From Chaenocephalus aceratus (lineage: Eukaryota > Chordata > Actinopteri > Perciformes > Channichthyidae), in assembly GCA_023974075.1 (NCBI GenBank), contig JAMFTG010000214.1, positions 174,005 to 238,004 of the forward strand: a stretch of 64,000 nucleotides of DNA, written 5' to 3'. Shown here piece by piece: positions 38,611 to 45,309 of this stretch; the stretch's first letter is position 1, and every line of letters starts with the position of its first letter. The position numbers and the translations under genes are program-made. The notes beneath the pieces are model-generated. The model was not told the DNA's origin and searched no databases. It worked only from the letters and a program-made list of their open reading frames with translations.

Positions 38611-39117
38611 GAGATTAAAATCTCTTTTCCAAGAGTGACCTGGCCAAGAAGGGCAGCATGTACAAAGTTACAACATATAAAACACAGACTTGAAAGGCAG
38701 ACAAATACAGCTGTAAAACACAAATAAAATGGCACATTAGCCAGTCAATATGTGAAGTAAAACAAACTATTAAAATCATTCGAAAACTGGCAACATTTAA
38801 AACGATTTCAGGATATACGAGCACTCACATCAACCAAAACTAAAAATGTTTTACGCAGTGACTGACATTCTGTATGGGAGTTCACACCCGAGCTACTGTA
38901 GGGGGTTGAGTATGTTATGGCTCTCGGGGGATGGTGGGTTAAGAGACAGATTCTTAGTTTTTGGACTGCCTCAGGGGGTTAACGAAATGTACTAAAACAA
39001 AGTACTTCATTATCTACTTTTTTCAGCTTTTATACACAAAAGTGCAGGGAAGGTAGGCAGATTTAGAACACTATCTGTGCGATAGTGTTAGTGTTCCATG
39101 CCCTTAAGAACAATTAA
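38611..39117. other. Interspersed repeat and a copy of the cluster's R repeat
   Basis: 38620-38900 begins ATCTCTTTTCCAAGAGTGAC, a motif common in percomorph repeats. 38985-39050 (AAAGTACTTCATTATCTAC, then CAGCTTTTATACACAAAAG) is the same family as the tandem repeats at 44190-44700, which ties this position to the virus-like cluster. Confidence 0.5.
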
Positions 39118-39240
39118 CACACACACACGCACGCACACACACACACACACACACACACACACACACACACACACACACACACACACACACACACACACAC
39201 ACACACACACACACACACACACACACACACACACACACAC
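39118..39240. repeat. (AC)n microsatellite
   Basis: About 60 CA dinucleotides with a few G interruptions near the left end. Confidence 0.97.
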
Positions 39241-39747
39241 GTTGGAGTTGCCCCTTGATGTGAGGATTTAAGATAAGCAGGGGATGTTAATCTATATGTT
39301 AATTAAGACACTCACTAAGACACCTAAAAAACGTTATTGCCCTCTCTAGATCTGATTCAGTTTTTGTTTAAATGATATGTGAGTGCTAAGGATGTTTCTT
39401 TTTAAGTTTTCTGTGAAACTGTTAACTACAAAGAAGTATCTGCTTGCAAAGAGGGTATTCATATTAATTTAAAAGATCTTATTTAGTTTTTAATAGTGAT
39501 ACCTGAGGATATTCTTTTTGGTTGTAGGATTTTGAACTAATGTATAATTACCTTTATTTAACTATAAGAAAAGTCTCTCTGAAGAGGGGAAATAATAAAA
39601 CAACAAACTTTGTCTTTTTATAATTACTTTACACCACTATAAGGAAAACCAATATTAAGTTTGTGTGAGGTTGTACTAGGGATAATACCCATAAAGAATG
39701 TGTGTTTCTGCTCCATTTCACTCCATGAAGCCTCCAGCTTGTACAAG
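39241..39747. other. AT-rich leader region before promoter module 1
   Basis: No ORF of note. Lies between the AC tract and the first promoter-like module of the cluster. AATAAAA at 39594-39600 could end transcripts from further left. Confidence 0.3.
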
Positions 39748-39811
39748 GGCTCCGCCTCCGCTCAACATAACATGTCCCGCCCTCCTCACCAGATCATTTA
39801 AAAGTAAGGGG
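39748..39811 (+). promoter_or_regulatory. Promoter-like module 1 of the virus-like cluster
   Basis: GCCTCCGCTCAACATAACA, then GTCCCGCCCTCCTCACC, then ATCATTTAAAA (39793-39803) and GTAAGG. The same ordered blocks recur at 41922, 42870 and 44720, each time upstream of an ORF on the plus strand. The TAAA-type box may serve as TATA element and the CACCC/CGCCC block as a KLF/Sp1 site. Confidence 0.7.
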
Positions 39812-39896
39812 ATGGAAATAGACGAAAATAAATACGCTCAAAATAAATAACAGGCCAGTCATTTCCAATCACCAAGGCACTTTTCAAAAAAGAAAA

Positions 39897-44024: not shown

Positions 44025-44188
44025 AATTGGTTTTTTACATTAAAAACTGTTGTCATCATTATAGCAAGGGGAGCGTGTCTGATACATGTGTATTACAGTC
44101 CTTCTTGTTGTGTTTTTCAGTGTTTTCTGTGTGTCTGTATACACAAAGCACAAATTATTTAAAACAAACCCTGAATCAATTAGAGAGG

Positions 44189-44705
44189 ACCATTAAGAGT
44201 CAGAATCCTAACGAAATCACCTCAAACAAAGTACTTCATTATCTACTTTTCAGCTTTTTTAAAAAGAAAAGTGTATCTTTCGGTAACTTTCTCAGAGAAT
44301 TTAAGCATAAATCTGTCAAATGTTCAAAACAGCCTTGTTTCACTGAAATACCCTCAAAATGACAAACTGCCATTAAGAGTCAGATTCTTAACCAAATCTA
44401 CTGACACAAAGTACTTCATTATCTACTTTTCAGCTTTTAAATACAAAAGTGTATCTTTCGGTAACCTTCTTGAGAGAATTAAGCATACATCTGTCAAAGA
44501 TTCTTAACGAAATCTACTGACACAAAGCACACTTCATTATCTACTTTTCAGCTTTTATACACAAAGTGTATCTTTCAGTAACTTTCCCAGAGAATTTAAG
44601 CATAAATCTGTCAAATGTTCAAAACAGCCTTGTTTCACTGAAATACCCTCAAAATGACAAACTGCCATTAAGAGTCAGAATCCTAACGAAATATCCTCAA
44701 ACAGA
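44189..44705. repeat. Tandem R repeats before module 4
   Basis: Three unequal copies anchored by GTACTTCATTATCTACTTTTC (about 44230, 44410 and 44530). They carry GTGTATCTTTC.GTAAC, GAATTTAAGCATAAATCTGTC and CATTAAGAGTCAGA blocks; the middle copy is shorter. A further copy is at 38985-39050. The ORFs across these repeats are copies of one another and not genes. Confidence 0.85.
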
Positions 44706-44719
44706 GTACTTTCTACAGA

Positions 44720-44799
44720 TGAGGCCTCCCACTCAACGCAATATGTCCCACCCACTCAGCAAATCATATAAAACTAAGGACGACCGTTGAAAACTAGCC
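44720..44799 (+). promoter_or_regulatory. Promoter-like module 4 with short leader
   Basis: GGCCTCCCACTCAACGCAAT, TGTCCCACCCACTCAGC, ATCATATAAAA (44763-44773), CTAAGGACGACC. The box is a good TATA match here. Only 26 bases separate it from the ATG, so the leader would be very short if it works as a TATA box. Confidence 0.72.
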
Positions 44800-45309
44800 A
44801 TGGATCTGAGAAAAACCAAGTCTGATGTAGCCTGCCCTTATTATCACCAGAATAACGGATATGGGCTTAATTACTGGATGTTACAAAGTAGGGGAGAGGA
44901 TGTCCCCGAAGAAGAGCTCTCCTCTATATCATATCCATGTAAGGTCTTTAGGACAAAAGAGGACCATGATAACATGACATATGAAGAATATCTTTCTTTA
45001 AAAGATGGTATTATAGATAACCTTTATAGAAACAGTATATCTCATACCACTCGCCAAGATCGCAAACGACAATTAGCAGAAAAGAATAGAAAAAGTAAAG
45101 AAAAACAAAGAAAAAGAAAAAGCAACATGAAAAGGAGAAGAAAAGTGAAAAGCAAATGCAGAATGCGAATGAAAAGAAAAGGGGCCAGAGGACGGAAAAC
45201 GAAAAAGACAAAAAGAAGGAAGGCGAAAAGAAAAAGAAACAAAGTGAAGACATTTAAACTAGAGGATGGTGTTGTAGAGCCATTATCAACACTTATCAAC
45301 TCGAAATAA
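44800..45309 (+). CDS. Cluster ORF 5, highly basic C-terminus, 3'-truncated
   Basis: 169 codons from GCCATGG after module 4. Residues 1-80 are mixed, with CPYYHQNNGYGLNYWMLQ and EEYLSLKDGIIDNLY. Residues 86-152 are mostly Lys and Arg (RKRQLAEKNRKSKEK, then KRKSNMKRRRKVKSK) and must act as a nuclear/nucleolar localisation or nucleic-acid binding tail, as in viral core proteins. The last eight codons and stop come from the duplicated repeat that begins at 45285, so the native C-terminus is lost. No homologue recognised. Confidence 0.6.
   Translation: MDLRKTKSDVACPYYHQNNGYGLNYWMLQSRGEDVPEEELSSISYPCKVFRTKEDHDNMTYEEYLSLKDGIIDNLYRNSISHTTRQDRKRQLAEKNRKSKEKQRKRKSNMKRRRKVKSKCRMRMKRKGARGRKTKKTKRRKAKRKRNKVKTFKLEDGVVEPLSTLINSK

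What the first reader, a model, noticed from the sequence alone, without database searches (positions are those of the whole stretch)
38985..45284. Candidate undescribed virus-like gene cluster driven by four copies of one promoter module
Seen: on the plus strand, four modules with the same ordered blocks (CACTCAAC-type, CACCC/CGCCC block, ATCAT-TAAA box, CTAAGGAC-type) at 39748, 41922, 42870 and 44720. Each sits 26-95 bases before an ORF. Two AATAAA signals lie just past ORF ends, and R-type repeats recur at 38985 and 44189. None of the ORFs resembles a fish gene or a standard transposon protein. Inference: a co-regulated compact set of genes, as in DNA viruses or virus-derived elements, integrated in unit B only and now decaying.
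Basis: partly seen in the sequence, partly recalled or inferred. Interest (0 to 1): 0.88.

Follow-up and report, generated by a model that had tools for sequence, protein, structure and literature searches.

The report
Decayed fish gene cassette, shared promoter
A stretch of a fish-like genome holds a worn-out set of small genes of unknown family that share almost the same short start-up switch and have decayed relatives elsewhere, so it is probably the remains of a virus or mobile element, but no known virus gene was found in it.

Summary
Four same-strand copies of one 55-70 bp promoter-like module stand at 39748, 41922, 42866 and 44716; a box drawn from the copies occurs nowhere else in the window and in 0 of 200 shuffles. 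Modules 3 and 4 share more: promoter, leader, start codon and first eight codons (40 of 45 bases from the leader on), then unrelated coding sequence. Three of three ORFs searched have unnamed protein relatives (3, 2 and 3). Four of those eight are frameshifted or deleted, and two run into module sequence, so gene order is kept: a repeated, decaying cassette. A hAT-like element with an 8-bp target duplication separates ORF1 and ORF2, probably one broken gene. No ORF gave a significant match in Pfam, PHROGs, solved structures or viral contigs (8 scans). The virus-like reading is plausible but unproved. "Integrated in unit B only" is not shown: unit A is cut inside a hAT transposase gene and holds other DNA. 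Best reading: relic of a multigene cassette of mobile or viral origin, perhaps a Maverick/adintovirus-type accessory region.

The parts
38961..39044 (+). outlying R-type repeat copy, about 700 bp before module 1
   Evidence: 38979-39044 88% to 44388-44451, E 3e-16; families D2/D5/D8
39748..39811 (+). module 1 (CGCTCAAC, CGCCC, ATCATTTAAAA, GTAAGG)
39897..40250 (+). ORF1, 117 aa; its last codon and stop lie in the inserted element
   Evidence: no family at a curated cut-off; not given to the large protein search (cap)
40237..40244 (+). target-site duplication CCATAGTG, left copy
40245..41499 (.). hAT-like non-autonomous element, ends CAGTGACCACCAACT and AGTTGGTGATCCCTG (13 of 15 as inverted repeat, counted by eye), interrupting gene 1
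   Evidence: no transposase was sought in it
41500..41507 (+). target-site duplication CCATAGTG, right copy
41505..41948 (+). ORF2 piece, 147 aa, probably the other half of gene 1; its end runs into module 2
   Evidence: relatives P0004 (95%) and P0005 (54%), E 4e-65 and 2e-19
41922..41990 (+). module 2
42032..42160 (+). 42-codon ORF after module 2, status unknown
   Evidence: never searched
42802..42845 (+). relic copy of the ORF2 3' coding end, just before module 3
   Evidence: 87% to 41819-41864, E 5e-8
42866..42935 (+). module 3
42943..42987 (+). leader, start codon and first eight codons shared with ORF5
   Evidence: 40 of 45 bases equal to 44779-44823
42964..43467 (+). ORF3, 167 aa, with a C-x2-C-x3-HPGQ-x2-H stretch
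   Evidence: relatives P0001-P0003, 70-84% identity over 58-63% of it, E down to 3e-53
43532..43996 (+). ORF4, 154 aa, no module of its own; its frame is open from 43280
   Evidence: relatives P0006-P0008, 72-91% identity, E down to 9e-69
44019..44024 (+). AATAAA, 23 nt after the ORF4 stop
44190..44711 (+). R-type repeat copies ending just before module 4
44716..44782 (+). module 4
44800..45309 (+). ORF5, 169 aa, very basic C-terminal half; last codons and stop in sequence shared with unit A
   Evidence: not given to the large protein search (cap)

Best explanation
This is a decayed copy of a repeated multigene cassette, without visible introns, of mobile or viral origin. Each gene was probably switched on by its own copy of one compact promoter: a CACCC/GC box, a TATA-like box and a CTAAGG end, with a very short leader. 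The cassette seems to have grown by copying the promoter, once with leader and first codons, and once with the tail of the gene before it, in front of unrelated coding sequences. The genes would then be expressed together; their products are unknown (one very basic, one with a Cys/His stretch, one perhaps helical). It later lost function: a hAT-like element split gene 1, and one copy of a gene end remains as a relic. Shown: the repeats, the shared start segment, the relatives, decay of other copies, the insertion. Inferred: promoter activity, co-expression, and viral or mobile rather than host origin.
For: Modules' box unique to these four places, three module pairs with E 5e-8 to 8e-18. m3/m4 share 20 of 21 leader bases and 20 of 24 bases of the first eight codons, then 16 of 60, about chance. 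The ORF2 tail is copied before module 3. Relatives for three ORFs of three given to the protein search. P0002 begins with a stretch that matches the translated module 3 (61% over 49 residues), and P0004 ends in the first bases of module 2. P0001, an ORF3 relative, begins MDLRKTKS, the first eight residues of window ORF5. P0001, P0002, P0003 and P0007, 4 of 8 relatives, match the window in more than one frame or lack a stretch. The hAT-like insertion has an exact 8-bp duplication.
Against: No capsid, polymerase, integrase or other hallmark recognised; the full six frames were not scanned (searches were not accepted). No viral-contig relative in 8 scans. No ends or terminal repeats: no 14-nt exact inverted match between 36500-39750 and 45200-48500. 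Both models are poor (mean pLDDT 42.5 and 38.1). Selection on the proteins is not shown: identity varies along ORF3 for P0002 and P0003 (p 3e-4 and 3e-6) but not clearly for P0001 (p 0.08), and the first two rows are frameshifted. Module 2 heads no long ORF, and ORF4 has no module.
Confidence: 0.55

Rival explanations
1. It is specifically the accessory-gene region of a vertebrate Maverick (proteovirus) or adintovirus, whose core genes lie outside or were lost.
For: Vertebrate Mavericks have accessory regions with diverse ORFs beside the core modules, intronless core ORFs, and 96% of loci are eroded (PMC8097293, section 7 and passages read). A survey of animal DNA viruses names many proteins that it could not identify and says that most mammal-associated adintoviruses appear to encode anti-apoptotic homologues or candidate oncogenes (PMC11071296, passages read).
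Against: No core gene recognised, no element ends found; no shared gene shown. The link rests on general likeness.
Confidence: 0.25
2. It is a piece of a larger endogenous DNA virus of fish, such as a Teratorn-like alloherpesvirus.
For: Such elements are widespread in teleosts (PMC10175614, abstract and outline seen).
Against: No herpesvirus protein was recognised among the five ORFs; alloherpesvirus proteins were not available for direct comparison. The fish-herpesvirus row in the viral fold search (Cyprinid herpesvirus 1 ORF36, E 2.8, poor model) is taken as noise.
Confidence: 0.1
3. It is a lineage-specific host orphan gene array grown by tandem duplication of promoter and gene ends, with no virus involved.
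For: It lies in a duplicated block with 84-nt repeat arrays that look like zinc-finger genes; the ORF2 tail plus module is a local duplication; no viral relative was found.
Against: Unrelated coding bodies behind the same start cassette, no introns seen, and decayed copies with the same layout elsewhere. No collection of animal genomes was at hand to test it.
Confidence: 0.25
4. The modules are an ordinary SINE or MITE and the ORFs are chance.
For: The surroundings are rich in transposable elements and repeats.
Against: No tRNA or Rfam match anywhere in the window; the modules stand on one strand in this cluster only; three ORFs have protein relatives; 0 of 2000 shuffles reach three long ORFs.
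Confidence: 0.05

Closest known systems
Accessory region of vertebrate Mavericks (proteoviruses)
   Same: diverse ORFs beside the core modules of integrated, mostly eroded elements of fish genomes (PMC8097293, read in part)
   Different: no core gene, terminal repeat or 6-bp duplication found here; a repeated promoter cassette is not mentioned in the passages read
Adintoviruses
   Same: integrase-bearing DNA viruses of animals with varied further genes (PMC11071296, passages)
   Different: their defining PolB, hexon and integrase were not recognised here
Teratorn-like endogenous alloherpesviruses
   Same: DNA-virus genes inside teleost genomes (PMC10175614, abstract)
   Different: no piggyBac or herpesvirus gene recognised among the ORFs scanned
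hAT non-autonomous elements (for 40245-41499 only)
   Same: 8-bp target duplication, short CAG-ended inverted repeats (hAT traits recalled)
   Different: it is an inserted passenger, not the cassette

Membership tests
Maverick / proteovirus | protein-primed DNA polymerase, integrase, capsid, ATPase, protease genes | tested here: inconclusive
   five ORFs and three minus-strand ORFs at 35302-36556 scanned against Pfam without such a hit; six-frame scan of the region not accepted; core may lie outside
Maverick / proteovirus | terminal inverted repeats with (AGT)2 or (AG)3 ends and 6-bp target duplication | tested here: inconclusive
   no exact 14-nt inverted match between the flanks; end motifs and duplications not searched; element ends unknown
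Adintovirus | adintovirus-type PolB, hexon and chromodomain integrase | tested here: inconclusive
   as above; none seen in the ORFs scanned
Teratorn-like element | herpesvirus core genes fused with piggyBac transposase | not tested
   no herpesvirus set at hand
Bcl-2 family (ORF4) | Bcl-2 profile match or clear fold match | tested here: inconclusive
   no Bcl-2 profile match for 4 of 4 members; poor model; BOK, Mcl-1 and BAX chains among the 50 PDB rows shown of 81, at E 2 to 6.5; no Bcl-2 chain among the 50 VIA rows shown
PC4/p15 domain (ORF1, ORF2) | PF02229 match | tested here: inconclusive
   resemblance only by eye; no such Pfam match; the two ORFs do not match each other; poor model
hAT element (40245-41499) | 8-bp target-site duplication and short inverted ends | tested here: met
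   CCATAGTG on both sides; 13 of 15 end bases, by eye

The most novel reading that the evidence does not exclude
A so far undescribed lineage of fish DNA virus or virus-derived element whose genes were recruited one after another behind copies of a single promoter-leader-start cassette, so that unrelated proteins begin with the same leader and first residues.
Probability: 0.2. Interest if true: 0.8.

Novelty: new variant of a known kind. Interest (0 to 1): 0.48.

Why it matters
If the cassette is viral, it adds gene families of unknown function to the fossil record of fish DNA viruses and shows a simple way to add genes to a co-regulated set: copy the switch, leader and start codon in front of a new coding sequence. 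The promoter box and the three relative sets give concrete handles to find longer copies.

Tried and rejected
Protein families: Pfam, five ORFs, best Phage_tail_terminator_5 E 0.02 (ORF2) and Tet_JBP E 0.054 (ORF1), both under their cut-offs; nothing for ORF3 and ORF4; six of the eight relatives (Polyhedrin E 0.091 for P0007); every member of alignments A1-A3. PHROGs: nothing below E 0.11. Solved structures by sequence: best E 0.03 for ORF1, taken as chance; others 0.15 or worse; for ORF5 only the first 90 residues were compared, best E 0.44.

Viral contigs: six protein or alignment scans and two DNA patterns, no relative; ORF5 was given as its first 90 residues. The Cys/His motif pattern gave seven contigs. 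L005 has a 179-codon frame that matches ORF3 over 15 residues only (9 identical; E 7e-5 for that single comparison, but the contig was picked by this motif); the rest of the frame matches a phage tail-terminator family at E 1.5e-21. L002 carries genes that look bacterial or phage-like by eye. L001, L003, L004, L006 and L007 have frames of 18 to 93 codons at the motif and were not followed. Genome contigs: nothing for A3 and A2.

Papers: searches (listings); read in part PMC8097293 (outline, section 7, passages) and PMC11071296 (passages); abstract and outline of PMC10175614. I make no claim that the cassette is absent from print beyond these searches.

The identity test along the alignments was left aside because frameshifted rows distort it. 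An inverted pair at 38108/45026, 76% over 29 nt, was dropped as chance on a hand estimate.

Full report
Setting. The window carries two near-tandem blocks, A and B; most of the longer shared pieces are 94-99% identical. Repeats of 84 nt, which I read as zinc-finger arrays by eye, and transposable elements are common. Between 35400 and 45284 block B has no counterpart in A; A holds 8825-14192 instead, with a 663-codon open frame that looks like a LINE reverse transcriptase by eye.

The modules. Four copies at 39748, 41922, 42866 and 44716 share, in order, a CACTCAAC-type block, a CACCC or CGCCC block, a CTCA-CA-ATCAT-TAAA box and a CTAAGG-type end. The box drawn from the four copies is found only there, all on the plus strand, and in 0 of 200 shuffles; since the pattern was made from these copies, the fairer numbers are the BLASTN values, E 1e-14, 8e-18 and 5e-8 for three of the six pairs, the other three not being listed at E 1e-5. 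The front block alone is weak in module 3 and not above chance at three mismatches. Modules 1 and 2 form one close pair, 3 and 4 another.

The shared start. Modules 3 and 4 continue alike through the leader (20 of 21 bases) and the first eight codons (20 of 24), after which ORF3 and ORF5 are unrelated (16 of 60 bases). In an outside relative, P0001, the ORF3-type protein begins MDLRKTKS, the same eight residues as ORF5 in the window. Before module 3 stands a 44-bp copy of the end of ORF2 (87%, E 5e-8), placed much as the end of ORF2 stands before module 2. So promoter pieces were copied with parts of the genes on either side. This is the most unusual part of the find.

The ORFs. Five reading frames are present; ORF1 and ORF2 lie on the two sides of a 1,255-bp element with an exact 8-bp duplication CCATAGTG and inverted ends matching at 13 of 15 bases, as in hAT elements (the hAT traits are recalled). 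I take them as two parts of one gene and searched them apart. ORF4 has no module of its own, stands 64 bases after ORF3, and its frame is open from 43280, so ORF3 and ORF4 may share one transcript. In 42800-45309, 0 of 2000 shuffles had three ORFs of 150 codons and 15 had at least one (of the three observed ATG ORFs two overlap). Two poly(A) signals lie 58 and 23 bases past ORF3 and ORF4.

Relatives. Three of five ORFs were given to the large protein search (its cap), and each has relatives: ORF3 3 of 20 candidates, ORF2 2 of 19, ORF4 3 of 21. They come from contigs whose longest lengths are 599 to 2120 bases, without names, from sources labelled ena, lgn and jgi. Four of the eight match the window in more than one frame or lack a stretch (P0001, P0002, P0003, P0007), which is decay. 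P0002 begins with translated module sequence and P0004 ends in its first bases, so module and gene stand together elsewhere too. I read the contigs as host DNA in mixed samples; that is inference. No relative was found in the viral contigs (8 scans) or in the prokaryote genome contigs (2 scans).

What the proteins are. Unknown. Pfam, PHROGs and solved structures gave nothing above chance (ORF5 against solved structures only by its first 90 residues). The models are too poor to use; fold searches gave nothing usable. ORF3 carries a C-x2-C-x3-HPGQ-x2-H stretch that all four aligned sequences keep except that P0002 has lost the last His, which could bind zinc; ORF5 is rich in lysine and arginine in its second half, which would suit nucleic-acid binding. 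These are suggestions from sequence alone.

How it got here. On the left, A keeps part of a hAT transposase gene that runs on in B: a weak RNase-H match (E 0.006, below its cut-off) at about 35305-35424 spans the junction at 35399, and a BED finger lies in the ORF at 36041-36556 (E 1.6e-13), so A lost or had replaced sequence there. On the right, the last codons and stop of ORF5 lie in sequence shared by both units. The simplest reading is that the cassette was in the ancestor and was replaced in A, but the right side does not decide it.

Verdict. A real, repeated and decayed multigene cassette with a copied promoter; its origin from a virus or other mobile element is likelier than a host gene array but not proved, and no known family can claim it on tested features.

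Noticed in passing
40245-41499: hAT-like non-autonomous element with exact 8-bp duplication inside the cassette's first gene; it holds a 45-nt direct repeat (40408, 40548).
   Followed up: partly
35302-36556: minus-strand remains of a BED-finger hAT transposase gene, truncated in unit A at 8824.
   Followed up: partly
9985-11973: 663-codon open frame in unit A, by eye a LINE reverse transcriptase; not scanned against a library.
   Followed up: no
12472-13266: minus-strand frame in unit A that looks by eye like a TRIM-type coiled-coil exon.
   Followed up: no
38005-38071: almost perfect 31-nt palindrome arms five bases apart, possibly a small foldback element.
   Followed up: no
44190-44711: R-type repeat copies end just before module 4 and one copy lies 700 bp before module 1; the copies at 44190, 44370 and 44498 hold TTATCTACTTTTCAG, which resembles a splice acceptor, the one at 38979 has two more T, and the partial one at 44665 lacks it.
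   Followed up: no
19042-19887 and 51208-51799: 84-nt tandem arrays, 10 copies in A and 7 in B, so the arrays differ in length between the blocks.
   Followed up: no
L005:2456-2992: a phage tail-terminator-like frame starts with VCIGCDQCHPGQTQH, close to the Cys/His stretch of window ORF3; taken as coincidence because the contig was chosen by that motif.
   Followed up: yes
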